Below, in pieces: positions 25,231 through 48,159 of a stretch of 64,000 bases of DNA. The stretch spans positions 186,001 to 250,000 of the forward strand of contig NZ_CP078078.1 of NCBI RefSeq assembly GCF_023101205.1, given 5' to 3'. Position numbers and translations under genes: made by a program. Under the pieces are notes generated by a model that made no database searches, was not told the DNA's origin, and saw only the letters and a program-made list of their open reading frames with translations. The stretch comes from Microbacterium aurugineum (lineage in GTDB: Bacteria; Actinomycetota; Actinomycetes; Actinomycetales; Microbacteriaceae). The number at the start of each line of letters is the position of its first letter. Within the stretch, counting starts at the first letter, position 1.

Positions 25231-25273
25231 GCGGACCGCGACCGGAAGGGTCGATGCGGGAGCGCGCACGCCC

Positions 25274-25303
25274 TTGCATCATGAAATCGATTTCGCGTAC
25301 AGT
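25274..25303 (+). promoter_or_regulatory. Promoter with LacI-type operator before the FGGY kinase
   Basis: TTGCAT (25274-25279), 18-base spacer, TACAGT (25298-25303). The exact 12-bp palindrome GAAATCGATTTC (25283-25294) lies in the spacer, so repressor binding would exclude RNA polymerase. Confidence 0.7.
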
Positions 25304-25349
25304 GTCGAACAAGCCACGGACTCGGTCGTCCCGGCAGGAGGAGGACTCC

Positions 25350-26873
25350 ATGCGCTGCACCCTCGGGGTGGACATCGGCACGTCCAGCAGCAAGGGCGTG
25401 CTGGTGGGGCCCGACGGCGTCATCGCGGCATCCGCGACCAGGGCGCATGACGTGGAACGACCGCACTCCGGCTGGGTCGAGATGGACGCCGCGATCTGGT
25501 GGGAAGAGTTCGTCGCGATCGTGCGCGAACTGCTCGCCGGAGTCCCGGAGGCCGAGATCGTGGGGGTGGGGGTCAGTGGCATGGGACCCTGTGTCCTGCT
25601 CGTCGATGAACGGGACGCCCCCGTGCGCCCCGCGATCCTGTACGGGGTCGACACCCGTTCGACCGCGCAGATCGAGCGTCTCACGCATGAGCTCGGTGTC
25701 GAGGAGATCACGCGTGTCGGAGGGTCGACACTGACCTCGCAGGCGGGCGGACCGAAGATCGCGTGGGTTGCGGAGGAGGAGCCCGAGGCCTGGGAACGCG
25801 CACGACGTCTGTACATGCCGGCGTCCTGGCTCGTCCGTCGGCTCACGGGAGCGTACGTGCTCGATCACCAGTCCGCCAGCCAGGTTTCTCCTCTCTACGA
25901 CATCGAGGGGGAGCGGTGGCACGACCCGTGGTGGGAGCGGTACGCCGGGGGCATCGAGCAGCCGCGCCTGCAGTGGGCGGGGGAGATCGCCGGAGAGGTG
26001 ACGGCTGAGGCAGAATCGGTCACCGGGATCCCTCTGGGAACGCCCGTGATCGCGGGGACGATCGATGCCTGGACGGAAGCTGTCAGCGTCGGCGCGCACG
26101 AGCCCGGCGACCTGATGCTGATGTACGGCACGACCATGTTCCTCGTGGCCACCGGTGAAGAGACCCTGCGGACCCCGTCCATGTGGACCACGGCGGGGGC
26201 CTTCGCCGGTACGCGTAGCCTCGCCGGCGGGCTGTCGACATCCGGGGCTCTGACCGCCTGGTTCAAAGGGCTGACCGGTGCCGACTATCCTGAACTGCTC
26301 GCCGAGGCTGCCGCGTCGGGTGCCGGAGCGCGCGGCCTTCTCGTGCTGCCCTACTTCGCGGGCGAGCGCACGCCGATCCAGGACCCGGACGCCCGGGGCG
26401 TGATCGCCGGGCTCACACTCGAGCACACGCGCGGCGACCTCTACCGAGCGATGCTAGAAGCGACCGCACTCGGTGTGCGGCACAACGTCGAGACCATGCG
26501 GGCGGCCGGCGCCGACATCCGCCGCATCGTCGCGGTGGGGGGCGGAACACAGGGTCGGCTTTGGCTCCAGGTCGTGTCCGACGTCACCGGCCTCGTCCAG
26601 GAGGTGCCTGCGACCACGATCGGCGCGAGCTACGGAGCGGCCTTTCTCGCGGCGACCGCGACGGCGGTGCCCGACGAGCGCCCGGCGATCACGGAGTGGA
26701 ACCCCATGTCAGAGCGGATCCGCCCGGATGACGGGTTGCGACCGTTCTATGACTCCCTGTTCGCGCGCTACCGGCGGCTCTATGAGGGATCCCGACCCGT
26801 GGTGCACCAACTCGCGGCCGCACAGCGAGGCGGCTCCCCGCTCACCCCGACCCCAACACCGGAGGAATCATGA
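25350..26873 (+). CDS. FGGY-family carbohydrate kinase (xylulokinase-like)
   Basis: 507 residues of the FGGY sugar kinase family. N-terminal phosphate motif TLGVDIGTSSSKGVLVG, the conserved GWVEMDAAIWWEE, the central IAGTIDAWTEAVSVGAHEPGDLMLMYGTTMF region with the catalytic Asp (TIDAWTE), and the C-terminal nucleotide motif RIVAVGGGTQGRLWLQVVSDVTG. It phosphorylates a sugar or sugar alcohol; the exact one is unknown. AGGAGGA before the ATG at 25350 fixes the start. Its stop overlaps the start of the isomerase-like gene (ATGA), so both proteins are made together. Confidence 0.87.
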   Translation: MRCTLGVDIGTSSSKGVLVGPDGVIAASATRAHDVERPHSGWVEMDAAIWWEEFVAIVRELLAGVPEAEIVGVGVSGMGPCVLLVDERDAPVRPAILYGVDTRSTAQIERLTHELGVEEITRVGGSTLTSQAGGPKIAWVAEEEPEAWERARRLYMPASWLVRRLTGAYVLDHQSASQVSPLYDIEGERWHDPWWERYAGGIEQPRLQWAGEIAGEVTAEAESVTGIPLGTPVIAGTIDAWTEAVSVGAHEPGDLMLMYGTTMFLVATGEETLRTPSMWTTAGAFAGTRSLAGGLSTSGALTAWFKGLTGADYPELLAEAAASGAGARGLLVLPYFAGERTPIQDPDARGVIAGLTLEHTRGDLYRAMLEATALGVRHNVETMRAAGADIRRIVAVGGGTQGRLWLQVVSDVTGLVQEVPATTIGASYGAAFLAATATAVPDERPAITEWNPMSERIRPDDGLRPFYDSLFARYRRLYEGSRPVVHQLAAAQRGGSPLTPTPTPEES

Positions 26874-28504
26874 CCACCTACACCCTGCCGGCCCCGGCAT
26901 CGCGTCCGGTTGCCGCCCCGAAGACGGCCTACCTCATCACCTCGGGCGATCTGCGAGAGTCGGCGAACGTCGCGGGCTGGCCCACCCAGGTCGAGCTCGA
27001 GATCGGGGTCACCGATGTGCTCGACGACCTCGGATGGCAGGTGATCCGTCCCTTCGGCGTCGACCCCGCCACCGGTCACGGGTTCATCTCCAGCCAGCGC
27101 ATGGGGCTCGAGGTCTTCCGGAGCATCCCGGTCGACGCGCCTCTGATCGTCGCGATCGCCAACTGGCAGTACTCGCACCATGTGCTCGCCGGTCTGCGCA
27201 CCCACGAGGGCCCGATCCTCACGGTCGCGAACTTCGCCGGCGATTGGCCCGGCCTCGTCGGCCTCCTCGGCTTGAACGCCGGCCTCACCAAGATGGGCAA
27301 GCCGTACGCCACGACCTGGTCGGTCGACTTCACCGACGAGTGGTTCCGCAACGGCATCCGGGAGTGGACCGAGACGGGCTCCATCGCGCACGACGCCTCG
27401 CACGTGCGTCCCCTGCCGGAGCTGCCGGACAGCCCCGAGAAGCAGCTGGGCGAGGCGCTCGCCGCGGAGCTGCTCGCCGAGAAGGCCATCATCGGCGTGT
27501 TCGACGAGGGCTGCATGGGCATGTACAACGCGATCTTCGACGACGAGCTGCTCAACAAGACGGGCATCTACAAGGAGCGGCTGTCGCAGTCGGCGCTCTA
27601 CGCCGAGATGCTCACCGTCACCGAAGACGAGGCGGACGCCGCGTACGACTGGCTGATCGATGCGGGCATGACGTTCCGCTTCGGGCCGGATGCCGCCACC
27701 GAGCTCACGCGCGAGCAGGTGCAGTGGCAGTTGAAGATGTACATCGCCGCGCTTCGTATCGCGGACGACTTCGGCCTCGACGCCGTCGGGATCCAGTACC
27801 AGCAGGGTCTGAAGGACCTGGTACCGGCGTCCGACCTGGCCGAGGGCATCCTGAACTCGACGGAGCGCCCGCCGGTGAGGTCGCGCGACGGTGCCCGGGT
27901 GCTGCACGAGGGACGCGCCTTCCCGCACTTCAACGAAGCGGATGAGGGCGTGGCGGTCGACGCGCTGGTGACCGACCGCGTGTGGCGTGCGATGGGACTC
28001 GTGCCGGACAACACGCTGCACGACGTGCGGTGGGGTGAGGACTACGACGGGGAGTTCGTGTGGGTCTACGAGATCTCCGGCTCCGTCCCCGCCTCGCACG
28101 TGGGCGGGTGGCAGAACGCGGAGGGATGGCGTCAGGGCCACGTGTTCTTCCCGGCGGGCGGTGCGACGATCAACGGGGTCTCCCAGCCGGGGGAGATCGT
28201 GCTGTCGCGGGTGTTCATCGCCGACGGCGTCCTGCAGGCCGACATCTTCCGTGCCTCGGTCGTCGAGCTCCCGGCCGACGAGACGCAGCGCCGGAAGGAT
28301 GCCACGAACCCGGAGTGGCCGATCGCGCACGTGGTGCTGCACGGCGTCTCACGGGATCAGTTCATGGCCCGCCACAAGGCCAACCACGCGCAGCTCGTCT
28401 ACGCACCGGATGCCGAGACGGCCGACCGGGCACTCATCGCGAAAGCCTCGATGTTCGCGGGGATGGGCATCCAGGTGAATCTGGTGGGCGACGTCACCCT
28501 CTGA
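26870..28504 (+). CDS. L-fucose/L-arabinose isomerase-like protein
   Basis: 544 residues. I recognise it as a member of the fucose isomerase-like family: an N-terminal region around residues 85-140 (LIVAIANWQYSHHVLAGL, GPILTVANFAGDWPGLVG), a central VFDEGCMGMYNAIFDDELLN (about 205-225) holding acidic residues fit for a metal, and a C-terminal part. It should interconvert an aldose and a ketose. Coupled (ATGA) to the FGGY kinase, it would supply the ketose for phosphorylation, as FucI-FucK or AraA-AraB do. The substrate is not known and the sequence is far from textbook FucI. Confidence 0.65.
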   Translation: MTTYTLPAPASRPVAAPKTAYLITSGDLRESANVAGWPTQVELEIGVTDVLDDLGWQVIRPFGVDPATGHGFISSQRMGLEVFRSIPVDAPLIVAIANWQYSHHVLAGLRTHEGPILTVANFAGDWPGLVGLLGLNAGLTKMGKPYATTWSVDFTDEWFRNGIREWTETGSIAHDASHVRPLPELPDSPEKQLGEALAAELLAEKAIIGVFDEGCMGMYNAIFDDELLNKTGIYKERLSQSALYAEMLTVTEDEADAAYDWLIDAGMTFRFGPDAATELTREQVQWQLKMYIAALRIADDFGLDAVGIQYQQGLKDLVPASDLAEGILNSTERPPVRSRDGARVLHEGRAFPHFNEADEGVAVDALVTDRVWRAMGLVPDNTLHDVRWGEDYDGEFVWVYEISGSVPASHVGGWQNAEGWRQGHVFFPAGGATINGVSQPGEIVLSRVFIADGVLQADIFRASVVELPADETQRRKDATNPEWPIAHVVLHGVSRDQFMARHKANHAQLVYAPDAETADRALIAKASMFAGMGIQVNLVGDVTL

Positions 28505-28922: not shown

Positions 28923-28938
28923 ACTTAATCGATATAGT
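28923..28938 (+). promoter_or_regulatory. LacI-type operator of the N-glycan locus, site 1 (endoglycosidase promoter)
   Basis: ACTTAATC|GATATAGT, fitting RCTNNANC|GNTWTAGY found at five places in this locus. The right half contains TATAGT (28933-28938), a likely -10 box of the endoglycosidase gene, so binding would block transcription. Confidence 0.72.
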
Positions 28939-29000
28939 CGGCGGCAGGTCGCTCTGATGCGGCCTGATCTCGATTTCGATGAAGAGGGAGACGATCTGCC

Positions 29001-30209
29001 ATGAGTCGGCCACATTCCAGGAAGCTTCACCGTCTACGACAGGGATTCACTGTCGCTGCGAGTGCGGTGATCGCGATGTCCTTCGTCGCGACCGCCTCAC
29101 CCGCGACCGCCGCCGTGGGGGCGGAGGCGGATCCCCAGCTCGCCGTCTATGTCGAGGTGAACTCGAACGATTTAGCCAACGTCGCCGATTACACGCTCGC
29201 GGATTCCGGGCGCGCCGCCGTCGACCTCGCGATGATCTTCGCCGCCAACATCAACTACGACGGAGAGAAGGCGTATCTGCACCTGAATGATCGGGTCACC
29301 GAGACGCTCCAGGACGCAGAGAACCAGATCCGTCCGCTGCAGGCACAGGGCACGAAGGTGCTGCTCTCCGTGCTCGGCAACCACCAGGGTGCGGGTTTCG
29401 CGAACTTCACCTCGTTCGCCGCGGCGGACGCCTTCGCCGCAGAGCTGGCCGATGCGGTGACGACCTACGGCCTCGATGGGATCGACTTCGACGACGAGTG
29501 GACGAACTACGGCGCGAACGGCACCCCGCAGCCCAACGCGCAGTCGTTCGGCTGGCTGGCGACCGCGCTGCGCGAGCGCCTGGGATCGGACAAGATCATC
29601 AGCCTCTACGCGATCGGCCCGTCCTACACCACCACCGACTTCGATGCGTTCGACGTCGACGGCGTGATCGACTACGCCTGGAACCCCTACTACCCGACGT
29701 ACGACGCCCCCACGGTGCCCGGGCTCGAAGATCGCACCCGCCTCGGTGCCGCTGCGATCGACCTGGCGAACACGAACGCGGCGACCGCCGCGGACTTCGC
29801 CCGCCGCACGGTCGCCGACGGATACGGGGTCTACGTGGCGTACAACCTCACCGCGACGGATCAGTCGGCGTACCTCTCGGGGATCACGCAGGAGCTCAAG
29901 GGGGAGCGGACCGAGTATCGCGCCGTTCCGCGGGATCGCACGGCTCCGACCGTGACCGTGAAGCCGGGGGAGGCGTTCACGACGGGATCTCCCGACGCGT
30001 ACTCGAAAGTCAGCTTCAAGCTGTACGACGCCGGCAACGTCGACAGGCTGTCGGTCAACGGTGTGCCGAAGGACCTGACCGACAACGCCTGGAGCGACCT
30101 GAACTTCGTGAAGCCGGGTGTCTTCGGTGCGGTGGCCGGAACCAACGTGCTCGAGGTGTTCGATGCGTCGGGAAACCGCACCGAGGTGCTCTTCACCCTC
30201 ACCGGGTGA
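29001..30209 (+). CDS. Secreted endo-beta-N-acetylglucosaminidase, GH18 Endo H type
   Basis: 402 residues. Signal peptide (about 1-38) with basic start, hydrophobic core VAASAVIAMSFVATA and an ATA-A cleavage site. The catalytic part (about 45-310) has the GH18 motif DxxDxDxE in LDGIDFDDEW, with Asp164 and Glu166 matching the Endo H catalytic pair, and further Endo H-like stretches GTPQPNAQSF, DKIISLYAIGPSY, IDYAWNPYYPTYD and DFARRTVADGYGVYVAYNL. Endo H cuts the GlcNAc-GlcNAc core of high-mannose and hybrid N-glycans. A C-terminal domain (about 315-402) looks like a small beta-sandwich. GAGGGAGA precedes the ATG. It ends one base before the convergent GH92 gene. Confidence 0.88.
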   Translation: MSRPHSRKLHRLRQGFTVAASAVIAMSFVATASPATAAVGAEADPQLAVYVEVNSNDLANVADYTLADSGRAAVDLAMIFAANINYDGEKAYLHLNDRVTETLQDAENQIRPLQAQGTKVLLSVLGNHQGAGFANFTSFAAADAFAAELADAVTTYGLDGIDFDDEWTNYGANGTPQPNAQSFGWLATALRERLGSDKIISLYAIGPSYTTTDFDAFDVDGVIDYAWNPYYPTYDAPTVPGLEDRTRLGAAAIDLANTNAATAADFARRTVADGYGVYVAYNLTATDQSAYLSGITQELKGERTEYRAVPRDRTAPTVTVKPGEAFTTGSPDAYSKVSFKLYDAGNVDRLSVNGVPKDLTDNAWSDLNFVKPGVFGAVAGTNVLEVFDASGNRTEVLFTLTG

Positions 30210-33200
30210 TCACACGAGGTCGAAGAGCTCGATCTGACGGATCGTGACCTCGGACTCCGCACGCACGCGGAGCGCCGGGGTCACGGTCCGCTCGACCAGG
30301 GTGAACGGCGTCGTGCGGTCGGCCCGCAGTTCTTCCCGATGCGTCAGCGCCAGGGGCCGCCAGTGCCCATCCGGGCCGAGGACCTCCCAGTGCAGCGCGG
30401 CCGAGGAGGCGGAGCCGGTCGTCGTCACCGTGACGTCGCTGACCCCGCGAGCCTCGGGGAACCGCCACCCCACCCAGTCGCCGGGGCGCAGGACGACGCC
30501 CGGACGACCCGAGGGGGCCCCGTCGTCGAACACCCGCTCGGGGTGGGCGACGAGAGCCGAGGCGATCACCTCGCCCTCGGTCGCGGTCAGATCGGCGCAC
30601 CATGGGACCGCAGGGAGGACGGGAGAGCGCCCGGACATCTCGAGCGCGGACGCCGGGTCGTCCCCGAACGTGAGGTCGAGGACGGCATCCCCCACGAGCG
30701 CATCGATCGGGAGGTCGGCGGAGGCGAGGGGCACGTCGTCGAGAGACGCCTCCTGCAGGATGTGGGCCCCGGCGGACCGTCGCCGGGAGCGGATCCGGAG
30801 GGAGGAGCCGTCCCCCCGATCCACCCGGATGTCGTCGTAGAGCGGCGAGCCGATCCGCAGGTGGCCCGATGCGAGCTCCAGCGGGTACAGCCCGAGTGCG
30901 CCCCACAGCCACCAGGCGCTCATCTCCCCGTTGTCCTCGTCGCCCGGGAAGCCCTGACCGATGTGGGCCCCGGCGAACAGCCGCCCCGCGAACTCATGGA
31001 CGAGCGGAGCCGACTGCCACGGACGGTCGCTGAACGCGTACATGAACGGGATGTGGTGTGCCGGCTGGTTGGAGAGCGCGCACATCCCGGAGCGCAGGGC
31101 CCTGGCCTCCCGTTGCTCATGGATCACGGTGCCGTATGCGCCGGCGAACCGTTCGTCCGCGGTCTCGGGTTCGGCGAACAGGGCATCGAGGTGACGGCCG
31201 AGCCCGACAGGTCCGCCGTGGAGGGCGGCGAGCCCGGCTCCGTCGTGCACCGCCCCCACCGACATCCCCCAGGCATTCGTCTCGACGTTGTCCCCGCCCC
31301 AGGCCCGCGGGTCGAACTCCGGAGCGAACGCCCCGCGCGAATCCCGCCCGCGGAAGAACCCGGTGCCGTCGTCGAAGAGCTGTCGATACGACCGGGAGCG
31401 GTTGGCGAAGTAGCGTGCGAAGCAACGGTAGCGAGCGGCTTCCTCGGCCGGTCCGGCGCCGGCGGCGAGCTGCAGGGCGAACCGGCCGAGGGCGGCATCG
31501 CTGAGTGCGTTCTCGATGCTCCAGCTCATGCCCTCGGGCGTCTCCGACGAGATGTAGCCGGTGAATCGGCCGCGTTCGATGCCCTTGCGTCCCCGTCGCG
31601 CATCCGGACCCGGCTCGCACGCGTTGCGCCATCCGCTGTCGAACGCGGTCTCACGGTCGAAGCTCACACCCCAGCGCGCGGCATCGGCGAAGATCTGGTC
31701 GCTGGACGTGCCGACCATGCTGTCCACGTAACCGGGCGCGCTCCACCGCGCCATCCATCCTCCGCGTCGATACTGTTCGAGCTGGCCGTCGAGGAGCCTG
31801 CCGGTCGATGCGGGATCGAGCAGGGCGAGTGCCGGCCACTCGGTGCGGTAGGTGTCCCAGTAGCCGTTGTTCACGACGAGTTCTCCGTCGGCGACCGTGT
31901 CGACGGAGTCGGAGAAGACATCCGCGAATCGCCGGCGCGGCTCCGCCGCGGTCCCGAGGTTCTCCCCGGCGCTGTTGGGGTACAGGTGCATCCGATGCAG
32001 TGCTGCGGCGATCCGGGCGCGGTGTTCCTCATCGGCGAGACCGCGGTAGGGGATCTCCTCCGCCGGCAGCGGGGGGATCGACACCCGGCCCAGCAGGCGA
32101 TTCCAGATCGCGGCGCCCTCGGCGCGCAACTCCTCGAAGGGACGGGTCGGGGGCGCCTCGGTCTCCAGGGCATGCCTGGCCTGGGCGACGGAGAGGAAGG
32201 AGATCCCGATCCGTAGTTCGAGCGATCCGCGTCCGCCCACATACCCGGCGACCCGACCGCGTCCGTCGTCGTCGAGCGGTCCGCGCTCGATCACGCCGTC
32301 GTCCGTGCGGCGCAGGGCGGTGCCGGCGAAGAAGCACCGGGGAGCGTTGCCCCAGTCCGCCGAGCCCTCCGGGATCCATCCCTCGAACCCGTCTGCGCCG
32401 GTCCAGGCGAGCTGGCCTTCACCGGTGAGCTGATCGATGACGAAGCCGATCGGGGCGTCGGGGTCCGCGCACCGCACCCGGAAGGCGGCAGCGTGCATCG
32501 TCGCGGTCATCTCGACGGTCAGACCATCGCCGAGGTCCGCCGCGTACTCGTGCGGACGCGCGCGTTCGGACCCCGGGACGATCCAGCGCCGGCGTCGCTC
32601 GCGGCTCGACACAGGATCTGCCAGATAGGGCATCAGCTGCAGCACCGAGCGATCACCGATCCAGGGACTCGGCTGGTGGGAGAACTGGAGGGCTTCGAGT
32701 CGGCGTCCCTGCGCGTCGTCGTGCACGAAGGGCCGGTACGGCCACCGGGAGTCGGCTGCGTCGGTGGCCGGCGTGACGAAGGTGAACCCGTGCGGGAGAG
32801 CCACGGCGGGGATGGTGTTGCCCCGCGAGAAGCGCGGTCCCGCATGCGTGCCGCGTCGGGTGTCGACGCGTTCGACGGGGGTGGGGGTGAGATCGCCCGG
32901 CGCGATCCGCTCCTCGGCCAGGACCTGCACGAAGCCGGTGACGCCTCCGGCATCCGCCTCGTCGGACAGCGCGTCGGCGCCGAGCACGAGTTCGACCGTG
33001 CCGCGTCCTCCGGTGCGGGGAGCGAGCGAGACGGTGTTCGCATTCCACTGCTCCGGCATGCTCCAGCGCGCGGCGAACTGGGCATCGGCGGTGATCGGGA
33101 AGTCGTAGCGGTCGCGGACCGCGGAGTCGTCGCTCAGCCGTGATCCGTCGTCGAAGCGCACGTCGGCCGAGACCGCGAGGGCGGCGTGCGGCGCCAGGGT

Positions 33201-33410
33201 CGCTGCCGGGCCGTCGGCGTAGAAGGTCCAGTGCAGCACCGTGTGGGGTGTGATCTCGATGTCGGCGAGACCCGGGGCATCGATCCGCTGCACCCCGCCG
33301 GTCGGGTCGAAGGCGAAGGCGAACACCGCACCCGGGAGCACTCCCGAGCGCGGTCGGGAGGACGGGGGATCGGCCGGCCCGTCCGCCGGGAGGAGCTGCA
33401 CGGCGTTCAC
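30210..33410 (-). CDS. GH92 family alpha-mannosidase, apparently cytoplasmic
   Basis: 1066 residues. The two-domain GH92 plan is seen: an N-terminal beta-sandwich (about 1-330) and a C-terminal (alpha/alpha)6 domain with VVNNGYWDTYRTEWPALALLD, YVDSMVGTSSDQIFADAARWG, and DEDNGEMSAWWLWGALGLYPLE, the last being a highly conserved acidic motif of the family. GH92 enzymes are calcium-dependent exo-acting alpha-mannosidases on N-glycan arms. No signal peptide or lipobox is present, unlike many bacterial GH92 proteins. The GTG at 33410 overlaps the stop of the upstream permease gene (GTGA). The frame stays open upstream to 34367, inside the permease, but that is a shadow. Confidence 0.85.
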   Translation of the reverse strand: MNAVQLLPADGPADPPSSRPRSGVLPGAVFAFAFDPTGGVQRIDAPGLADIEITPHTVLHWTFYADGPAATLAPHAALAVSADVRFDDGSRLSDDSAVRDRYDFPITADAQFAARWSMPEQWNANTVSLAPRTGGRGTVELVLGADALSDEADAGGVTGFVQVLAEERIAPGDLTPTPVERVDTRRGTHAGPRFSRGNTIPAVALPHGFTFVTPATDAADSRWPYRPFVHDDAQGRRLEALQFSHQPSPWIGDRSVLQLMPYLADPVSSRERRRRWIVPGSERARPHEYAADLGDGLTVEMTATMHAAAFRVRCADPDAPIGFVIDQLTGEGQLAWTGADGFEGWIPEGSADWGNAPRCFFAGTALRRTDDGVIERGPLDDDGRGRVAGYVGGRGSLELRIGISFLSVAQARHALETEAPPTRPFEELRAEGAAIWNRLLGRVSIPPLPAEEIPYRGLADEEHRARIAAALHRMHLYPNSAGENLGTAAEPRRRFADVFSDSVDTVADGELVVNNGYWDTYRTEWPALALLDPASTGRLLDGQLEQYRRGGWMARWSAPGYVDSMVGTSSDQIFADAARWGVSFDRETAFDSGWRNACEPGPDARRGRKGIERGRFTGYISSETPEGMSWSIENALSDAALGRFALQLAAGAGPAEEAARYRCFARYFANRSRSYRQLFDDGTGFFRGRDSRGAFAPEFDPRAWGGDNVETNAWGMSVGAVHDGAGLAALHGGPVGLGRHLDALFAEPETADERFAGAYGTVIHEQREARALRSGMCALSNQPAHHIPFMYAFSDRPWQSAPLVHEFAGRLFAGAHIGQGFPGDEDNGEMSAWWLWGALGLYPLELASGHLRIGSPLYDDIRVDRGDGSSLRIRSRRRSAGAHILQEASLDDVPLASADLPIDALVGDAVLDLTFGDDPASALEMSGRSPVLPAVPWCADLTATEGEVIASALVAHPERVFDDGAPSGRPGVVLRPGDWVGWRFPEARGVSDVTVTTTGSASSAALHWEVLGPDGHWRPLALTHREELRADRTTPFTLVERTVTPALRVRAESEVTIRQIELFDLV

Positions 33411-34342
33411 CCCTTGATCGCGCCCTCCTGCACGCCCTTGAAGAAGAACCGCTGCGTGAAGGAGAACATGATCACGATCGGCACGAGGGCGATCATGGTG
33501 CCGGCCGCGATGAGGCGCGGATCCACGGAGAAGCTGCTGTTGAGGTAGGCCATGCCCACCGTCAGTGTGTACTTCGAGGGATCGGACAGGACGATGAGCG
33601 GCCACAGGTAGTCGTCCCAGGCACCGATGAAGGCGAAGATCGCGACCACGGAGACCATGCCGCGGATGTTCGGCCAGACGATGTGGCGGATGCGCTGCCA
33701 CGTGGTGGCCCCGTCGACCGTCGCGGCGTCCAGCACGTCCTTCGGGATCATGCGGCACGCGGTGGCGATCAGGAGCACGTTCATCGCGCTGATCGCTCCG
33801 GGGAGGAAGACGCCCCAGAGGGTGTCCGCGAGTCCCAGTGCGCGGATGGTGAGGAAGTTGCTGGTCACCGTCACCTCGCCGGGGAAGAGCAGAGTGGACA
33901 GGAGGATCCCCATCACGATCCACTTGCCCCGGAATCTCATGCATCCCAGCGCGTATCCGGCGAACGTCGACAGCACGACGTTGCTCACGACGGTCCCGAC
34001 CGAGACGAGCAGCGAGTGCCAGGCGTAGAGGTAGACCGGGACGATGTCGGCGACCTTGCTGTAGTTCTGCAGCGTGGGTTCGCGGGGGATGAGCTCGGGC
34101 GGGAAGGAGTAGATGTTCTCCTGAGGGCCCTTGAAAGAGGTGGACAGCTGCCAGACGAACGGCCCGATCACGAGGAACAGGACGAACAGCAGCAGCGCAT
34201 AGCGCCCGATCAGTCCGCCGAGGCTGGGTGTGCTGAAGTCTCCGGAGCCGCGACGGCGGAAGATGCGCTCGCGCGTGGGCGACACAGGGCCGTCGGTGGA
34301 CCGGGTGTCGTCGGCCGGGCGCTGCGGGGTGAGGGTGCTCAT
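33407..34342 (-). CDS. Sugar ABC transporter permease, MalG type (CUT1)
   Basis: 311 residues with six predicted membrane helices after a 45-residue cytoplasmic tail. The CUT1 permease EAA loop is seen as DAATVDGATTWQRIRHIVWP (about 210-230). It pairs with the upstream MalF-type permease to import an oligosaccharide. It overlaps the MalF gene by four bases and its stop overlaps the GH92 start (GTGA), so the importer and mannosidase are co-translated. The ATPase of this importer is not encoded here; a shared MsiK-type ATPase elsewhere is likely (family knowledge, inference). Confidence 0.92.
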   Translation of the reverse strand: MSTLTPQRPADDTRSTDGPVSPTRERIFRRRGSGDFSTPSLGGLIGRYALLLFVLFLVIGPFVWQLSTSFKGPQENIYSFPPELIPREPTLQNYSKVADIVPVYLYAWHSLLVSVGTVVSNVVLSTFAGYALGCMRFRGKWIVMGILLSTLLFPGEVTVTSNFLTIRALGLADTLWGVFLPGAISAMNVLLIATACRMIPKDVLDAATVDGATTWQRIRHIVWPNIRGMVSVVAIFAFIGAWDDYLWPLIVLSDPSKYTLTVGMAYLNSSFSVDPRLIAAGTMIALVPIVIMFSFTQRFFFKGVQEGAIKG

Positions 34343-35265
34343 GCGGAGACCTTCGCCTTCTTCTCACGGTTCATGACGGCGATCGCGGCGAGGGGCACGA
34401 GGGTGAGCAGGAACAGCGCCACGCTGATCGCGGAGGCGTAGCCGATGTTCCCGTTCAGGCCGGACCCCACCTGGCGGATGAGCATCACGAGCGACATGTC
34501 GTACCCGCCGGGCCCTCCGGTGCTCTTTGACAGCACGTCGAGTTCGGCGAAGACGCGCATCGCGGACACGGCGATGAGCACCGCGATGAGGAGCATGGCT
34601 CCTCGCACCGACGGGATCGTGACTGAGAGGAAGCGGCGGAAGGCCCCGGCGCCGTCGAGCATCGCGGCCTCGTGCAGCTCCTTGCCGACGTTCCCGAGCG
34701 CGGCGAGGTACACGACCATGTAGTAGCCCAAGCCCTTCCAGACCGTGAGCAGGATCGCGCAGCCCAGCAGCAGCCAGCGATCGACGAGGAAGGCCATCGG
34801 CTTGTCGATCAGACCGAGGAACTCCAGCGTCTGGTTGATGATGCCGCGGCTGTCGAAGAGCCAGGTCCAGATGAGGGCGACCACGACCACCGAGGCGATC
34901 ACGGGGAAGTAGAACGTGGTGCGGAAGAACGAGATGCCCGGGAGCTTCTTCTGCACCAGCAGGGCGAGCAGGAGGGGGAGGATCGTGAGCAGGGGCACGC
35001 ACACGACCACGTAGATGAGGCACGTGGTCAGCGCATTCCAGAACATCTCGTCGCCGAACATGCGCTCGTAGTTCGCTCCCCCCACGAACTCGGGCGTCCG
35101 CAGCGGCCGGGCGTCGGTGAAGCTGAGGAAGACCGTGTTGAGGAACGGCCAGAGCGCGAACACCAGCACCCAGGCGACGGCGGGGCCCAGCAGCAGCCAC
35201 GGAGTGAACCATCGGTGGGATCTCATCGACGATCCGCGGTCGCGGATGCCGGTGTTCGCGCGCAT
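34339..35265 (-). CDS. Sugar ABC transporter permease, MalF type (CUT1)
   Basis: 308 residues, six predicted membrane helices (first FTPWLLLGPAVAWVLVFALWPFL). The EAA motif reads EAAMLDGAGAFRRFLSVTIP (about 195-215). It starts three bases after the binding-protein stop. With the MalG-type gene it forms the channel of a carbohydrate uptake (CUT1) importer. Confidence 0.92.
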   Translation of the reverse strand: MRANTGIRDRGSSMRSHRWFTPWLLLGPAVAWVLVFALWPFLNTVFLSFTDARPLRTPEFVGGANYERMFGDEMFWNALTTCLIYVVVCVPLLTILPLLLALLVQKKLPGISFFRTTFYFPVIASVVVVALIWTWLFDSRGIINQTLEFLGLIDKPMAFLVDRWLLLGCAILLTVWKGLGYYMVVYLAALGNVGKELHEAAMLDGAGAFRRFLSVTIPSVRGAMLLIAVLIAVSAMRVFAELDVLSKSTGGPGGYDMSLVMLIRQVGSGLNGNIGYASAISVALFLLTLVPLAAIAVMNREKKAKVSA

Positions 35266-35268
35266 GGC

Positions 35269-36570
35269 TTACTGGTCCACGCGGTTGGCGTTGGCGTACT
35301 CGACGATCTTGTCGAGCTGGGCCTTGGCGTCCGCTTCACCGTTGACGGCGAGGGCGATCTGCTGGGTCATGTAGGTCGCCATGTCGGAGGTCCACTGGAA
35401 CGGCAGGGCCTTCGCATCCTTCATCGCGCCGAACACGGTGTCGATCGCCGCGAGCTGCTTCTCGTCGGTGACGGAGGACGCGATGTTCTCGACGACCTCA
35501 TCCCCGCCGTTCGCGGTGCCGGGAGCCGTGCCGACGGCGAGCGACGAGAAGGCCACCTGGTTCTCCTGGTTCGTCGCGAACTCGGCGAACGCGAGTGCGG
35601 CCTCCTTGTTGTCGGAGTCGGCCGAGACGTTGAGACCCTGCACATAGAGGGGTGCGACCCCGAGGCGAGGGGTCGCCACCGTGTTCTCGAGCAGTGCGGG
35701 TGCATCCTTCTGCAGGTCGGTCGTGAAGCCGGTGCCGCCCGTCGTGAAGGCCACCTTCTCCTGGATGTAGGCTTCGGCGTTTCCGCCGTAGTCGCCGGTC
35801 AGGGCCTCGGCGGGCATGGCTCCGGCTGCGTAGGCGTCGGCGTACTTCTGGATGATCGCGGCGGCTTCGTCGGTGTTGAAGTCGAACTCGCCGTCGGCGT
35901 TGATGACCTCCATGCCCGCCGCCGTGAAGGTGTCGAGCGCGGGGATGGAGGACAGGAGCTGGACCTTGCCGCCGGATTCCGTGGCCACCTCCTCGGCGAG
36001 GGTGAGGAGCTCGTCGACCGTGGTCGGGAGGTTGTCCTCCGTGACGCCGTACGGGGCGAGCTGCGCGAGGTTCCACCACGAGGCGTCGCTGGAGAGGTAC
36101 CAGGGCAGGCCGTAGGTGCCGTCGATGCCCGGGTACGCGCTGTACGCCTCCCACGCGCCGGCGTTGTAGGCGGACTCCAGCTCGGGATCGGCGGTCTGGA
36201 GGTCGACGAGCTTGCCCGCAGCGACCAGCGGATACGCGATGTCCGGCGGCAGGTTCAGCACGTCCGGGAGCGTGTCGGCGTTCGCCTGGCTCAGGATCTT
36301 CTCCTGGTAGCCGTCTCCCGGCTGGTCGAGCCACTCGACGGTGACGTCCGGGTGCTCCTTCTCGAACGCATCGATCAGATCCTCGAAGTACGGGGTGAAC
36401 TTCTCGTTCTTGAGCGACCACGTCTGGAACTGGATCGTGCCGCTCAGCTCGCCCGACGTGTCGATGGGGCCCGAGGCGCCGGATGCCCCTCCGCCTCCCG
36501 TGCAACTGGTCAGCGCCAGAACGCCGATGCTGAAGGCTGCCAGAGCGACAATGCGTGTGGGAGATTTCAT
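35269..36570 (-). CDS. Sugar ABC transporter substrate-binding lipoprotein
   Basis: 433 residues. Lipoprotein signal with lipobox at Cys23 (VLALTSC), a Gly/Ser linker, then a type 1 extracellular solute-binding protein (MalE family): FQTWSLKNEKFTPYFEDLIDAFEKEHPDVTVEWLDQ near the start and KEAALAFAEFATNQENQVAFS late. The expected ligand is the N-glycan oligosaccharide freed by the Endo H-like enzyme (inference from the locus). First gene of the minus-strand operon; an operator (36620-36635) and promoter (36638-36666) precede it. Confidence 0.92.
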   Translation of the reverse strand: MKSPTRIVALAAFSIGVLALTSCTGGGGASGASGPIDTSGELSGTIQFQTWSLKNEKFTPYFEDLIDAFEKEHPDVTVEWLDQPGDGYQEKILSQANADTLPDVLNLPPDIAYPLVAAGKLVDLQTADPELESAYNAGAWEAYSAYPGIDGTYGLPWYLSSDASWWNLAQLAPYGVTEDNLPTTVDELLTLAEEVATESGGKVQLLSSIPALDTFTAAGMEVINADGEFDFNTDEAAAIIQKYADAYAAGAMPAEALTGDYGGNAEAYIQEKVAFTTGGTGFTTDLQKDAPALLENTVATPRLGVAPLYVQGLNVSADSDNKEAALAFAEFATNQENQVAFSSLAVGTAPGTANGGDEVVENIASSVTDEKQLAAIDTVFGAMKDAKALPFQWTSDMATYMTQQIALAVNGEADAKAQLDKIVEYANANRVDQ

Positions 36571-36619
36571 CGTGCTTCTTCCTCGAGGCGGGCGATTCCG
36601 CGTGGTGTCCGGTCGATGG

Positions 36620-36635
36620 ACTACAACGCTTTAGC
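36620..36635 (-). promoter_or_regulatory. LacI-type operator of the N-glycan locus, site 2 (importer-GH92 operon)
   Basis: ACTACAAC|GCTTTAGC, fitting RCTNNANC|GNTWTAGY. It lies two bases downstream of the proposed minus-strand -10 box, over the start point of the importer operon. Confidence 0.7.
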
Positions 36636-36637
36636 AG

Positions 36638-38092
<1,455 letters not shown>

Positions 38093-38096
<4 letters not shown>

Positions 38097-39124
38097 TCGG
38101 TGCGCGTGGGCGGGGCCGTGCTCTCGCGCGCCGTGAGCACAGGAGTCGGGCCTTCGACGCTCGGCAGGTTCGCGCCCGCTTCAATCTGCTGGAGCAGCAG
38201 GGTGGCGGCGCGCTCGCCGAGTTCGAAGGTGTCGCGCGTCATCGCCGTGATCGACGGGTTGATGAGCCCCGCGATGACCGAGTCGTCGAAGGAGGCCAGC
38301 GAGACGTCGCGGGGAACCCTGCGTCCCATCTCCTGTGCGACGCGGAGACCGGCGACCGCCATCACGTCGTTGTCGTAGACGATCGCGGTGGGCCGCCGCC
38401 GTCCGGAGAGCAGCGCCCGCGTCACCGCGGAGGCGCGGGCGGGGGAGAAGTCGGTGGTGATGACCTCGCCCTCCACGCCATCGGCCGACAGGCGTTCCAA
38501 GACCTCGGCCCGCAGCCGGGTGTGTTCGAGCTCCGCCGGTCCTGCCACGTAGGCGATGTGCACGTGCCCGAGCGCGGCGAGATAGGAGTAGAGCGTCTCC
38601 GCCACCGTGTCGTCGCCGATCCACACGCTGGGCACCGTCCCGTCGGGAGACGGCTTCGACCCGATCATCACGGCGCGGGCGTCGAGAGCGGCGATGCGGT
38701 CGGCCCGAGGATCGTCGTCGCGCGGGTCGATGAAGATGAAACCGTCGACCTGGTTGGACGAGCGCCACTGCCGATGCACCTCCATCTCCTCCGCGATGTC
38801 CGCCACCAGACGCAGCTGCAGACTGACCTTGCTCTCGGAGAGGCGCGATTCGATGCCCGCGATGAGGTCGGTGAAGAAGGCCTCCGATCCGAGGGAACGG
38901 GCGGGGCGCGCGAGTGCGAAGCCGACGGTGTTCGCCCGCGCGCCGACGAGGGCGCGTGCCGCCGAACTCGGCTGCCAGCCGTTCTCCTCGACGACGGCGA
39001 GGATCCGCTGCCGGGTCTCCTCGCTCACTCCGGGGCGCCCGTTCAAGGCGAAGGAGACGGCGCCGGGGGAGACCCCGGCCATGCGCGCGATGTCGGCGAT
39101 CGTGACGCGCTTCGCCGGACTCAT
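38093..39124 (-). CDS. LacI-family regulator of the N-glycan locus
   Basis: 343 residues. LacI DNA-binding domain RVTIADIARMAGVSPGAVSFALNGRPGVSEETRQRIL (about 6-42) with hinge, and sugar-binding domain (for example GFIFIDPRDDDPRADRIAAL, HIAYVAGPAELEHTR). GAGGGA upstream supports the ATG at 39124. It is flanked by GH5 and GH38 genes, and its own promoter carries one of five matching operators (39138-39153). It presumably represses the whole locus until an imported mannoside binds. Confidence 0.92.
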
Positions 39125-39137
39125 AGTCCCTCACCCT

Positions 39138-39153
39138 ACTTGATCGGTTTAGC
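39138..39153 (-). promoter_or_regulatory. LacI-type operator of the N-glycan locus, site 4 (lacI itself)
   Basis: ACTTGATC|GGTTTAGC, fitting RCTNNANC|GNTWTAGY, 14 bases before the lacI start codon. Implies autorepression. Confidence 0.7.
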
Positions 39154-39190
39154 CCGGTGGAAGGCGGATCGGGTGTGTTCTAGACTCGCC

Positions 39191-39206
39191 ACTAGATCGT
39201 TTTAGT
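39191..39206 (+). promoter_or_regulatory. LacI-type operator of the N-glycan locus, site 5 (GH38 gene)
   Basis: ACTAGATC|GTTTTAGT, the most symmetric of the five (six of eight positions pair). It lies about 80 bases before the GH38 start codon. Confidence 0.75.
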
Positions 39207-39284
39207 AAATCGGATAGCATTCATCACACGGGTTCGCGGCGACGTCCCGCGAACCTGCCCTCACCGTCGAGTCGGAGATCCCCT

Positions 39285-42200
39285 ATGCATGACGACACCT
39301 CGCTCACCGTCGGCCGCGTCAAGCGTGTGCTGGAGGAGCGCATCCGCCCGTCGATCCACTCGGCGTCGGTGCCGCTGCAGGTCGAGATCCACGAACTGCC
39401 CGGGGAGCCGATCGCACCGGCGGAAGGGCTCGCCCTCGACTACACCGCCGGCTCCGTGGGCGCCCCGTGGGGACCGGCCTGGGGAACCACGTGGTTCAAG
39501 CTCACCGGGCGGGTGCCGTCCGAGTGGGCCGGCCGCAAGGTCGAGGCGCTGATCGACCTCGGGTTCGACGTGAACATGACGGGCTTCCAATGCGAGGCCC
39601 TCGCCTACCGACCGGGCGGCACGGGGTCCGACCCGATCCCGGTGAAGAGCATCAACCCGCGAAACCAGTGGGTCCCGATCGTCGAGACGGCAGCGGGCGA
39701 CGAGCCGGTCGAGCTGTACCTCGAGGCGGCTTCCAACCCGGTGCTCCTGGACTACCACCCCTTCCTCCCGACGCAGGAGGGCGACATCCTCACATCCTCG
39801 AAGGAACCGCTCTACCGCGCCCGGCGGATGGATCTGGCGGTGTTCGAGCAGGAAGTGTTCGACCTGGCGCTCGACCTCGAGGTGCTCTTCGAGCTGCAGG
39901 CGGAGCTGCCGGCAACCTCGCCCCGTCGCATGCGCATCCTGCAGGCCATGGACGATGCGCTCGACGTCCTCGACCTGCAGCACATCGTCGCCACGGCCTC
40001 CGATGCCCGTGCCCGCCTGGCCGAAGTGCTGGCCGCACCCGCCGAGGCGAGTGCGCACCGGATCTCGGCCGTCGGTCACGCGCACATCGATTCGGCGTGG
40101 CTGTGGCCCGTGCGCGAGACGATCCGCAAGGTCGCACGCACCACCTCGTCGATGACGGCTCTGCTGGAGGAGCAGTCCGAATTCCGGTACGGCATGTCCA
40201 GCGCACAGCAGTACGCCTGGATCAAGGAGCACCGCCCCGAGGTCTGGGAGCGGGTCAAGGCCGCGGTCGCCGAAGGGCGCTTCCTGCCCCTGGGTGGCAT
40301 GTGGGTCGAGTCCGACACCGTGATGCCGACGGGGGAGTCGCTCGTGCGGCAGTTCTCGCAGGGGCAGCGGTTCTTCGAGCGGGAGTTCGGCATCCGGTCC
40401 AAGGGCGTGTGGCTCCCGGACAGCTTCGGGTACTCGCCCGCCCTGCCGCAGCTGATGCGCCGCGCCGGGTTCGAGTGGTTCTTCACGCAGAAGATCTCGT
40501 GGAACCAGCAGAACGTCTTCCCGCACCACTCCTTCCTCTGGGAGGGCATCGACGGGTCGCAGGTGTTCACGCACTTCCCGTCGATGGACACCTACAACTC
40601 GCAGTTGAGCGGCATGGAGGTCGCGAAGGCCGCCCGGCAGTTCAAGGAGAACCGGGTCAGCTCGCGCTCGATCGCCCCGGTCGGCTGGGGCGACGGCGGT
40701 GGCGGGACGACCCGCGAGATGACGGGCAAGGCTGAACGCCTCCGTGACCTCGAGGGCAGCGCGCAGGTGGTGTGGGAGCATCCGGACGACTTCTTCGATG
40801 CCGCGAGAGCCGAGCTGCCGCATCCGGCGGTGTGGGTGGGGGAGCTGTACCTCGAGCTGCACCGCGGGACGCTCACCAGCCAGCACGCCACCAAGGCACT
40901 GCACCGCTGGGCCGAGCACGCGCTGATCGAGGCGGAGCTGTGGGCGGCGACGGATACGGTGCGCACCGGTGCCGCCTACCCGCAGGCCGAGTTCGACCGC
41001 TTGTGGCAGACCGTTCTCCTGCACGAGTTCCATGACATCCTCCCGGGGACCTCGATCGCCTGGGTGCACCGCGAGGCCGTCGCCGTGCTGACGGACGTGC
41101 TCTCGGATGCGCAGGACATCGCGGGTGCCGCGCGACGCTCGCTCGCGGGCGAGGGCGATCGCGAACTGCGGTTCGAGCCGACCTCGGTCGGGCGCGCGGG
41201 GGGACAGGGGCACGCTCTCGGCGCGGCGTTCCTTCCCGAGGCGACCCCCGCTGCCGTCTCGCTCTCGCAGGAGGACGACGGTTGGCGGCTGGAGAACGAG
41301 CTCGTCTCGGTGCGCGTGTCCGCCGACGGTCTGATCGTCTCCGCCGTCGACAAGGCATCGGGGCGCGAGGCGGTCACTGCGGGAAAGGCTGCGAACCTGT
41401 TCCAGCTCCACCAGGACTTCCCGAACATGTGGGACGCCTGGGACATCGATCGCTATTACCGCAACAGCGTCGACGACCTCACCGCCGTCACGTCGATCGA
41501 GGCGACCATGGTCGGCACCGTGGCGAAGATCGTGGTCGTGCGCCCGTTCTCGGAGTCGACCATCACGCAGACGATCCTTCTCGCACCCGGCTCGCGGACC
41601 GTGCTGCTGCGCAACGAGATCGATTGGCACGAGACCGAGAAGCTGCTCAAGCTCGCCTTCCCGCTCGACATCCAGGCGGCGCACACCGAGGCCGAGACGC
41701 AGTTCGGCTACCAGTCGCGGGTGACGCACACGAACACCAGCTGGGAGGCGGCGAAGTTCGAGACGTCGATGCACCGGTTCGTCCTGGTGCGCGAGCAGGA
41801 CTTCGGCGTCGCACTCGTGAACGACTCGATCTACGGCTACGACACATCCCGCGAGGTGTCGGATGATGCGGTGACGACCACGGTGAGGCTCTCGCTGCTG
41901 CGTGCCCCGCGGTTCCCCGACCCCGACACCGACCACGGCCACCACGAGATCGAGGTCGGTTTCGTGATCGGGGCGGACGCCGAGATCGCGACGGCCGAGG
42001 GCATCCGGATCAACGCGCTCCCCACCGTCGTGCGGGGTGCGCGCGAGGTCGAACCCCTGGTGTCGGTCCGGGGTGAGGGGATCGTCGTGTCGGCGGTCAA
42101 GCTCGCCGACGACGGATCGGGCGACGTGATCGTGCGCGTGTACGAGGCGCTCGGGCGACGCACGGCCGGCGAGTTGACGGTCGGGTTCGAGCACCACGGG

Positions 42201-42305
42201 GTGCGCGAGGTGAGTCTGATCGAGGACGACATCGAGGACGCGCGTACCGGTGGCGACCTGAGACTGCGTCCGTTCGAGGTGCGCACGCTCCGCATCGCCC
42301 GCTGA
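39285..42305 (+). CDS. GH38 alpha-mannosidase, apparently cytoplasmic
   Basis: 1006 residues, usual for bacterial GH38. The zinc site begins GHAHIDSAWLWP (His265, His267, Asp269) and the nucleophile is probably Asp379 in VWLPDSFGYSPALPQ; HEFHDILPGTSI carries a further conserved His-Asp. N-terminal 230 residues and the C-terminal beta domains match the MngB/Ams1-type plan. No signal peptide. It should remove alpha-mannose from imported oligosaccharide, complementing GH92 linkages. A LacI-type operator is upstream. The gene is followed by a palindromic element (42319-42382) and the rRNA promoter region. Confidence 0.93.
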   Translation: MHDDTSLTVGRVKRVLEERIRPSIHSASVPLQVEIHELPGEPIAPAEGLALDYTAGSVGAPWGPAWGTTWFKLTGRVPSEWAGRKVEALIDLGFDVNMTGFQCEALAYRPGGTGSDPIPVKSINPRNQWVPIVETAAGDEPVELYLEAASNPVLLDYHPFLPTQEGDILTSSKEPLYRARRMDLAVFEQEVFDLALDLEVLFELQAELPATSPRRMRILQAMDDALDVLDLQHIVATASDARARLAEVLAAPAEASAHRISAVGHAHIDSAWLWPVRETIRKVARTTSSMTALLEEQSEFRYGMSSAQQYAWIKEHRPEVWERVKAAVAEGRFLPLGGMWVESDTVMPTGESLVRQFSQGQRFFEREFGIRSKGVWLPDSFGYSPALPQLMRRAGFEWFFTQKISWNQQNVFPHHSFLWEGIDGSQVFTHFPSMDTYNSQLSGMEVAKAARQFKENRVSSRSIAPVGWGDGGGGTTREMTGKAERLRDLEGSAQVVWEHPDDFFDAARAELPHPAVWVGELYLELHRGTLTSQHATKALHRWAEHALIEAELWAATDTVRTGAAYPQAEFDRLWQTVLLHEFHDILPGTSIAWVHREAVAVLTDVLSDAQDIAGAARRSLAGEGDRELRFEPTSVGRAGGQGHALGAAFLPEATPAAVSLSQEDDGWRLENELVSVRVSADGLIVSAVDKASGREAVTAGKAANLFQLHQDFPNMWDAWDIDRYYRNSVDDLTAVTSIEATMVGTVAKIVVVRPFSESTITQTILLAPGSRTVLLRNEIDWHETEKLLKLAFPLDIQAAHTEAETQFGYQSRVTHTNTSWEAAKFETSMHRFVLVREQDFGVALVNDSIYGYDTSREVSDDAVTTTVRLSLLRAPRFPDPDTDHGHHEIEVGFVIGADAEIATAEGIRINALPTVVRGAREVEPLVSVRGEGIVVSAVKLADDGSGDVIVRVYEALGRRTAGELTVGFEHHGVREVSLIEDDIEDARTGGDLRLRPFEVRTLRIAR

Positions 42306-42698: not shown

Positions 42699-42880
42699 CG
42701 TGCACTTGTCAAATGCCAAATTATCCTCGTCTAGCTTCGGCTGGGTGAGAATTCCTTTGGATCAAAGACCAGCCCTTCCGGGGGCTGGCAATGGATGAAG
42801 TCAGCAATGAATTTGTCTCTTTGGTCAGCATCAAACTCGCTGCGTTCATCGTTTTCCCGGTGTTCGTATGCATTTCTTTT

Positions 42881-47925
<5,045 letters not shown>

Positions 47926-48147: not shown

Positions 48148-48159
48148 CTCCTTTTAAAC

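What the first reader, a model, noticed from the sequence alone, without database searches (positions are those of the whole stretch)
28923..42305. Probable high-mannose N-glycan utilisation locus in an actinobacterium
One 13-kb block contains a secreted Endo H-like GH18, a CUT1 sugar importer, GH92 and GH38 alpha-mannosidases, a GH5-like enzyme with a beta-mannosidase context, and a LacI regulator. Sequence shows the motifs, and only the GH18 has a signal peptide, while the other three hydrolases appear cytoplasmic. Known biology: Endo H-type enzymes free high-mannose glycans, and bifidobacteria take up and trim such glycans with a similar set that uses GH85 instead. Inference: Microbacterium uses GH18 outside, imports whole glycans and removes alpha- then beta-mannose inside. 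I do not know of this exact arrangement being described here.
Basis: partly seen in the sequence, partly recalled or inferred. Interest (0 to 1): 0.78.

Follow-up and report, generated by a model that had tools for sequence, protein, structure and literature searches.

The report
High-mannose N-glycan utilisation locus in Microbacterium
A bacterium of the genus Microbacterium carries a compact gene set that appears to cut sugar trees off glycoproteins outside the cell, import them whole and digest them inside; among its relatives the cutting and import parts seem to be exchanged according to the kind of sugar tree eaten.

Summary
The block is real and largely as described: a secreted Endo H (GH18), a CUT1 importer, GH92, GH38 and GH5_18 hydrolases and a LacI regulator, in Microbacterium. 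The core idea is known (GH5_18 N-glycan loci of actinobacteria). (1) A palindromic LacI-type operator, CTnnAnCGnTnnAG, lies before all three transcription-unit groups; the six locus copies outscore the 17 other exact matches in the genome. One copy lies inside the Endo H coding sequence, held by a TTA leucine codon in 21 of 21 close relatives, the only site with TTA in the aligned genes. (2) In 247 Microbacterium genomes, Endo H (32 of 33) and an EndoS-like GH18 (12 of 12) occur with GH5_18, never together. (3) A constant core (GH5_18, GH38, LacI, operator) carries either Endo H + GH92 + importer A or EndoS-like + GH20 (sometimes GH29, sulfatases) + importer B. Importer trees need one A/B change, core trees 6-10. 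I read this as a release-and-import cassette exchanged to match high-mannose or complex N-glycans. Activities, ligands and the cytoplasmic place of GH92 are inferred, not measured.

The parts
28924..28937 (.). LacI-type operator before Endo H gene (CTTAATCGATATAG)
   Evidence: runs into a TATAGT -10-like hexamer (read by eye)
29001..30209 (+). Endo H-type GH18 endo-beta-N-acetylglucosaminidase, secreted; extra C-terminal module about residues 303-402
29162..29175 (.). Intragenic operator inside the Endo H coding sequence, including the gene's only TTA codon
30210..33410 (-). GH92 alpha-mannosidase, alpha-1,2-type; probably cytoplasmic (crude rule ambiguous)
33407..34342 (-). CUT1 ABC importer permease 2
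34339..35265 (-). CUT1 ABC importer permease 1
35269..36570 (-). Sugar-binding lipoprotein (SBP, type A)
   Evidence: lipobox read by eye
36621..36634 (.). Operator in the SBP / GH5_18 divergent region
36689..36702 (.). Second operator in the SBP / GH5_18 divergent region; runs into TATAGT (by eye)
36747..38057 (+). GH5_18 exo-beta-1,4-mannosidase (Man-beta-1,4-GlcNAc type), no signal peptide
38093..39124 (-). LacI-family regulator
39139..39152 (.). Operator in the LacI / GH38 divergent region
39192..39205 (.). Second operator in the LacI / GH38 divergent region
39285..42305 (+). GH38 alpha-mannosidase, no signal peptide

Best explanation
This is a LacI-controlled high-mannose (and probably hybrid) N-glycan utilisation locus. 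Endo H is secreted and cleaves the chitobiose core of glycoproteins, freeing Man(n)GlcNAc. The SBP/CUT1 importer, powered by an ATPase encoded elsewhere, takes the glycan in. Inside, GH92 removes alpha-1,2 mannose, GH38 removes the remaining alpha mannose, and GH5_18 splits Man-beta-1,4-GlcNAc into mannose and GlcNAc. LacI represses all units, including Endo H, through operators that mostly come in pairs, one of them inside the Endo H gene. Shown here: gene content, homology, conserved catalytic residues, signal peptide on Endo H, operator conservation, co-occurrence. Inferred: activities, order of steps, import of the intact glycan, cytoplasmic GH92, repression, and an inducer common to both glycan classes (such as Man-beta-1,4-GlcNAc), since the same LacI and operator serve both locus types.
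For: Endo H equivalog and PDB match. GH5_18 match to solved enzymes whose N-glycan-core role is stated in passages of PMC6160142 and PMC12691653. GH38 match to solved bacterial alpha-mannosidases; 7ufu has Ala where the window has Asp in WLPDSFGY, which I take for a nucleophile mutant. GH92 residues aligned by eye with 7nsn at the catalytic Glu, the two Asp and the His-Glu pair named in passages of PMC10167667. Signal peptide rule: Endo H 33 of 33, EndoS-like 10 of 10, GH5_18 0 of 69, GH38 1 of 55, GH20 0 of 22, sulfatases 0 of 7 and 0 of 7. Operators: 6 in the window, all in the locus, 0.64 expected, 0 of 100 shuffles reach 6; they score 19.3-24.3 bits, the 17 other exact matches in the genome 7.2-15.8. 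Endo H with GH5_18 in 32 of 33 genomes that have it, out of 247, 4.5-8.4 kb apart in the 30 of these where both lie on one fetched stretch.
Against: No activity, ligand, binding or expression data. The same crude rule flags GH92 in 12 of 30 homologues, the window's included, and GH29 in 3 of 3, and the hydrophobicity scores of GH92 (0.87-2.15) overlap those of Endo H (1.79-2.72); I discount this because the stretch is conserved in sequence and follows a proline-rich, hydrophilic start, but GH92 could be exported, as in S. pneumoniae (passage). The nearest solved SBP relative scores only 103 bits and its ligand was not checked. Three relatives (G211, G135, G126) keep importer and GH92 but have no Endo H match, so Endo H is not obligatory. 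No ATPase gene was called in the locus; two MalK-type matches lie elsewhere. Sites with a mismatch to the operator pattern were not searched. One Endo H genome lacks GH5_18 (G208).
Confidence: 0.82

Rival explanations
1. The locus serves fungal alpha-mannan or O-mannosyl glycans, with N-glycan cores only a minor substrate.
For: GH92 and GH38 also act in yeast mannan loci (passages of PMC10154615; PMC10167667).
Against: Endo H and GH5_18 act on the N-glycan core, which mannan side chains lack (family knowledge). No GH125 in the genome. GH76 and GH99 were not searched for.
Confidence: 0.1
2. GH92 works outside: it is exported and trims the glycan before or after Endo H, and only the trimmed core is imported, as in S. 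pneumoniae (GH92 outside, passage of PMC10154615).
For: A crude rule flags a signal-like stretch in 12 of 30 GH92 homologues, the window's included.
Against: The other 18 of 30 are not flagged; the stretch GVLxGxVFAFxFDP is conserved in sequence and preceded by PADPPSSRPR, unlike a signal peptide; the same rule also flags GH29 in 3 of 3, where it reads a conserved FHFGLNTF stretch.
Confidence: 0.12
3. The A/B split reflects descent of two old locus lineages, not exchange of cassettes.
For: On the flanking isomerase tree (30 rows) only 3 A/B changes are needed and B as one clade is not rejected (p-AU 0.07). Labels are clustered on the GH5_18 tree.
Against: Core genes need 6 (GH5_18), 6 (LacI) and 10 (GH38) changes and one-clade trees for A are rejected (p-AU 2e-7, 2e-4, 2e-4), while SBP and both permeases need 1 (quick trees, GH5_18 tree already seen with 5 changes). 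G002 (B) and G077 (A) are fully supported sisters on the flank gene.
Confidence: 0.25
4. The invariant TTA codon in Endo H is kept for translational control by a rare leucine tRNA, as with bldA in Streptomyces (recalled), not as part of an operator.
For: TTA is used once among 494 leucine codons in ten window genes.
Against: The AAC and GAT codons before it are also invariant in 21 of 21, together they form the same palindrome as the five intergenic sites, and 17 of 18 more distant Endo H genes use neither GAT nor TTA there.
Confidence: 0.07
5. GH5_18 and partners act on another beta-mannoside, not on N-glycans.
For: GH5 relatives of this clade, GimA and GimB, decompose the sporangium matrix in Actinoplanes (title and passage of PMC12691653).
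Against: Linkage to two kinds of endo-beta-N-acetylglucosaminidase: 44 of 45 genomes that have either also have GH5_18.
Confidence: 0.04

Closest known systems
GH5_18 N-glycan loci of gut and soil actinobacteria (Higgins et al. 2021, ACS Chem Biol; seen only as reference entries; abstract recalled; text not held)
   Same: GH5_18 core beta-mannosidase in a Gram-positive locus with importer and partner genes (recalled)
   Different: Whether Endo H/GH92 versions, the operator or the A/B exchange are in that paper could not be checked
Bifidobacterium longum high-mannose system (Cordeiro et al. 2022; not held; known here through passages of review PMC10154615)
   Same: Whole glycan imported, then demannosylated inside by GH38; GH5_18 for the core disaccharide (passage)
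   Different: There three GH38 plus GH125 in one operon; here one GH38 in the locus plus GH92 and an Endo H-type GH18, and no GH85 or GH125 in the genome
Cutibacterium acnes N-glycan locus 1 (PMC6160142, passages)
   Same: GH38/GH5_18 pair, SBP and permeases, regulator, GH20 and GH18 in strain 266
   Different: That GH18 has no signal peptide and resembles EndoT; the paper does not mention GH92 (0 occurrences)
Bacteroides thetaiotaomicron operon with GH18 BT3987 and three GH92 (PMC10154615, passages)
   Same: GH18 release enzyme and GH92 enzymes acting inside
   Different: Gram-negative; one GH92 plus GH38 and GH5_18 here; that the other lacks GH5_18 is recalled
Streptomyces Endo H
   Same: Same enzyme family, about 50-58% identity
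   Different: In the Streptomyces-titled loci kept no GH5_18 or GH38 match lies in the fetched flanks; one (L066) has a weak GH92 match

Membership tests
Endo H (NCBIfam NF045482) | Score over curated equivalog cut-off of 300 bits | tested here: met
   361.6 bits
Endo H (NCBIfam NF045482) | Catalytic DGxDFDDE motif and secretion signal | tested here: met
   (signal by crude rule)
Endo H (NCBIfam NF045482) | Cleaves high-mannose and hybrid N-glycans | not testable with these tools
   needs enzyme assay
GH5 subfamily 18 | Closest to characterised GH5_18 over nearly the full length | tested here: met
   9y4v, ScGH5_18, BlGH5_18, exo-beta-1,4-mannosidase 6gvb; dbCAN not available
GH92 alpha-1,2-mannosidase | Catalytic Glu and Asp pair, His-Glu at +1 subsite | tested here: met
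   read by eye from the alignment to 7nsn with residue roles from PMC10167667 passages
GH38 alpha-mannosidase | Four GH38 domain models over cut-off; Asp in the WLPDSFGY stretch | tested here: met
Actinobacterial GH5_18 N-glycan locus | GH5_18 with GH38, CUT1 importer and endo-glycosidase in one block | tested here: met
Actinobacterial GH5_18 N-glycan locus | Supports growth on N-glycans | not testable with these tools
   needs culture
B. longum-type high-mannose system | GH125 (review passage) and GH85 (recalled) present | tested here: not met
   0 matches in own genome; 1 of 14 control genomes rings for each
Yeast alpha-mannan locus | GH76 / GH99 endo-mannanases | not tested
   no search run for these families

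The most novel reading that the evidence does not exclude
Microbacterium keeps one N-glycan locus with a constant core (GH5_18, GH38, LacI and its operator) whose release-and-import cassette is repeatedly exchanged: Endo H + GH92 + importer A for high-mannose glycans, or EndoS-like GH18 + GH20 with GH29 and sulfatases + importer B for complex glycans. The regulator stays the same because it senses a late intermediate common to both, such as Man-beta-1,4-GlcNAc. In the Endo H type of the window's clade one operator has been written into the enzyme's own coding sequence.
Probability: 0.55. Interest if true: 0.65.

Novelty: new variant of a known kind. Interest (0 to 1): 0.52.

Why it matters
It gives an Endo H, a familiar laboratory reagent, a visible physiological role as the first step of a regulated feeding pathway. 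It suggests that import specificity and release specificity travel together while the core and its regulator stay put. That would make the ligands of uncharacterised sugar-binding proteins predictable from the neighbouring endoglycosidase, and it makes the LacI inducer directly testable.

Tried and rejected
Considered and rejected: GH18 as an ordinary chitinase (ChiD-type score 27.5 bits against a cut-off of 750); a 450-aa neighbour of core-only loci as an MFS transporter (it is DUF2252; my label 'MFSb' is wrong); other genome sites as strong operators (the 17 other exact matches score lower; sites with a mismatch were not searched, so a wider regulon is not excluded). The adjacent isomerase/kinase/tricarboxylate-transporter operon has no exact operator match and is taken as a neighbour. 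Seven operator-pattern matches inside SBP_B and one inside SBP_A were not followed.

Limits and dropped rows: one search kept the best 80 of 206 relatives. Several fetched stretches end at contig ends, so absences may be artefacts of short stretches. One search left out seven distant genomes (G043, G221, G216, G096, G060, G085, G205), genomes with neither SBP type, and short fragments; its trees are quick and without the mixture model. One search, with the mixture model and all 69 rows, gives 5 A/B changes for GH5_18 against 6. One search left out L108-L110, L151 and L153; its 'intergenic' means outside matches to the 14 query genes; of 21 Endo H loci named for the codon control, 18 printed a match. 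One search left out LacI matches under 48% identity or not starting near residue 1 (57 rows counted); its 194 training sites are all pattern matches in the stretches of genomes with a LacI match (four stretches and the window excluded beforehand or by name), the same-species genome G186 included. One search used 30 of the 34 loci with the isomerase. SBP type was assigned by best score, so the single change on the SBP tree is partly by construction; the permease trees and endoglycosidase labels are independent of it. Fisher tests do not correct for relatedness. The distances mixed gene ends and were redone.
Full report
WHAT IS THERE. The window lies at C1:186001-250000 of a one-contig 3.63 Mb genome. 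The locus is 97-100% identical, gene by gene, to one in Microbacterium sp. CBA3102 (L001, where GH38 is cut by the stretch end). Eight genes lie in 29001-42305: Endo H-type GH18 (+); GH92, two CUT1 permeases and a sugar-binding lipoprotein (-), overlapping or nearly touching; GH5_18 (+); LacI (-); GH38 (+). An rRNA operon follows at 42880-48148. On the other side lie tricarboxylate-transporter, DHDPS-like, LacI, FGGY kinase and fucose-isomerase-like genes.

ENZYMES. GH18 passes the Endo H equivalog cut-off (361.6 against 300 bits) and matches solved Endo H at 290 bits with the catalytic motif kept. It is the only PF00704 match in the genome. The GH5 gene has no Pfam or NCBIfam match at E 0.001 but matches PDB 9y4v at 933 bits, ScGH5_18, BlGH5_18 and the exo-beta-1,4-mannosidase 6gvb. 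GH92 is the only one in the genome. Aligned to 7nsn it keeps, by eye, the general acid, the two Asp residues and the His-Glu pair that PMC10167667 assigns to catalysis and alpha-1,2 specificity (passages). GH38 matches solved bacterial alpha-mannosidases at 782 bits. A second GH38 lies at C1:361145 with its own importer genes. GH125 and GH85 are absent.

WHERE THE ENZYMES WORK. A hydrophobicity scan and then a fixed rule were used in place of SignalP. The rule flags Endo H in 33 of 33 and EndoS-like in 10 of 10 homologues, GH5_18 in 0 of 69, GH38 in 1 of 55, GH20 in 0 of 22 and the two sulfatases in 0 of 7 each. It also flags GH29 in 3 of 3 and GH92 in 12 of 30, the window's included. I take both for false: in GH92 the stretch GVLxGxVFAFxFDP is conserved in sequence and follows PADPPSSRPR. 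So release outside and core digestion inside are well founded, and the place of GH92 is less sure.

OPERATORS. CTnnAnCGnTnnAG occurs six times in the window, all in this locus, with 0.64 expected and 0 of 100 shuffles reaching six. The whole genome has 23 sites; the same pattern read backwards has 43. A matrix trained on 194 sites from other stretches gives the six locus sites 19.3-24.3 bits and the other 17 genome sites 7.2-15.8 bits. Five sites are intergenic: one before Endo H and pairs in the SBP/GH5_18 and LacI/GH38 divergent regions. In two of them the operator runs into TATAGT, a -10-like hexamer (by eye). The helix-turn-helix stretch VSPGAVSFALNGR of LacI is identical in 52 of 57 counted relatives, in loci of both types.

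OPERATOR INSIDE A GENE. The sixth site, 29162-29175, is in the Endo H coding sequence. In 21 of 21 Endo H genes of the window's clade (80% identity or more) the codons AAC GAT TTA are invariant; over the 193 columns with a near-invariant amino acid the commonest codon has a mean share of 0.79. TTA makes up 21 of 468 leucine codons in the aligned part, and this site accounts for all 21. In ten window genes TTA is 1 of 494 leucine codons, again this one. Of 18 more distant Endo H genes printed, 17 use neither GAT nor TTA there; L020, which has an operator match just upstream, has GAT TTC. The distance to the upstream operator is 232-238 bp in the window's clade. I infer a looping or roadblock operator.

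DISTRIBUTION. In 247 genomes of the genus GH5_18 is in 69 and the Endo H catalytic part in 33 (24 further genomes match only the C-terminal module). An EndoS-like GH18 is in 12. Endo H co-occurs with GH5_18 in 32 of 33, EndoS-like in 12 of 12; both together in 0. Endo H and GH5_18 lie 4.5-8.4 kb apart in the 30 genomes where one stretch holds both. In the 80 named loci kept, 25 of 28 Microbacterium-titled and 17 of 19 Curtobacterium-titled loci have GH5_18 near Endo H; no Streptomyces-titled locus shows a GH5_18 or GH38 match in its flanks (my count).

TWO CASSETTES. Neighbourhoods of the 69 GH5_18 genomes and of G208 were fetched and typed. Of these 70, 37 have SBP type A and 17 type B, none both. 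With A: Endo H in 32, GH92 in 34, GH20 in 6, EndoS-like in 0. With B: Endo H 0, GH92 0, EndoS-like 10 in the fetched stretches, GH20 16, GH29 3, two sulfatases 7 each. The two further EndoS-like genomes, G127 and G163, are also type B with the gene on another contig. One EndoS-like protein (L084) scores 288 bits to the EndoS TIM-barrel family; its best solved matches are an entry named chitinase (6kpl, 223 bits), then CP40 and EndoS/EndoS2-type enzymes. Importer trees need one A/B change each; GH5_18 needs 6, LacI 6, GH38 10, and one-clade trees for A are rejected. The flanking isomerase gene is found in 34 of 76 stretches: 22 A, 6 B and 6 core-only; gene order differs between types. On a tree of 30 of these the A/B split needs 3 changes, and one clade for B is not rejected (p-AU 0.07), so exchange at the site is likely but not proven.

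MECHANISM. Endo H frees the glycan, the importer brings it in, GH92 and GH38 strip alpha-mannose, GH5_18 splits the last disaccharide. The ATPase is probably a shared MalK-type protein; two matches lie elsewhere. Because LacI and its operator are the same in both types, the inducer is likely a common late product; this is inference.

WHAT IS KNOWN. GH5_18 loci with GH38, importer and GH18/GH20 are described in C. acnes (PMC6160142, passages). B. longum and B. thetaiotaomicron systems are summarised in PMC10154615 (passages). Higgins et al. 2021 was seen only as a reference entry; its text is not held. Listings of searches with Microbacterium or N-glycan locus terms show no title on this locus; PMC10167667 mentions a Microbacterium GH92 with a CBM32. 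No paper held five of six terms for a LacI N-glycan regulon. The library holds open-licence papers only, and long lists were cut.

VERDICT. The finding is right in substance and a variant of a known kind. The operator set, the operator inside the gene and the cassette split are the parts that I could not find in print.

Noticed in passing
window 29907-30206 (Endo H residues about 303-402); L101:5945-6214: The C-terminal module of this Endo H recurs in large proteins of other Microbacterium genomes, and in tandem in a 1488-aa GSDH/laminin-G protein of this genome; Pfam shows nothing over it at E 0.001. Only 10 of 33 Endo H matches extend to its end (my count).
   Followed up: partly
L081, L082, L083 (G211, G135, G126): Loci that keep importer A, GH92, GH38, GH5_18 and LacI but whose genomes show no Endo H catalytic match; possibly users of glycans released by neighbours.
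   Followed up: partly
L085:7304, L088:6939: Perfect palindrome CTGAAGCGCTTCAG matching the operator pattern inside the SBP_B coding sequence; may be chance held by protein conservation.
   Followed up: no
L102 (G000:C1:355000-368000): Second GH38 gene with its own SBP, permeases, a MalK-type ATPase match and an aldehyde dehydrogenase, without an exact operator match.
   Followed up: partly
L093, L096, L099: Core-only loci with GH5_18, LacI and operator but no close importer or GH38 match nearby; a gene of the DUF2252 family (tested in L093 and L096) lies beside GH5_18.
   Followed up: partly
window 25254-28504: FGGY kinase plus fucose-isomerase-like protein with tripartite transporter genes upstream; substrate unknown; the isomerase gene marks the locus site in 34 of 76 stretches.
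   Followed up: partly
L029: Record titled Enterococcus sp. ZJ1622 carries an Endo H 56% identical to this actinobacterial one; possibly a mislabelled record.
   Followed up: no
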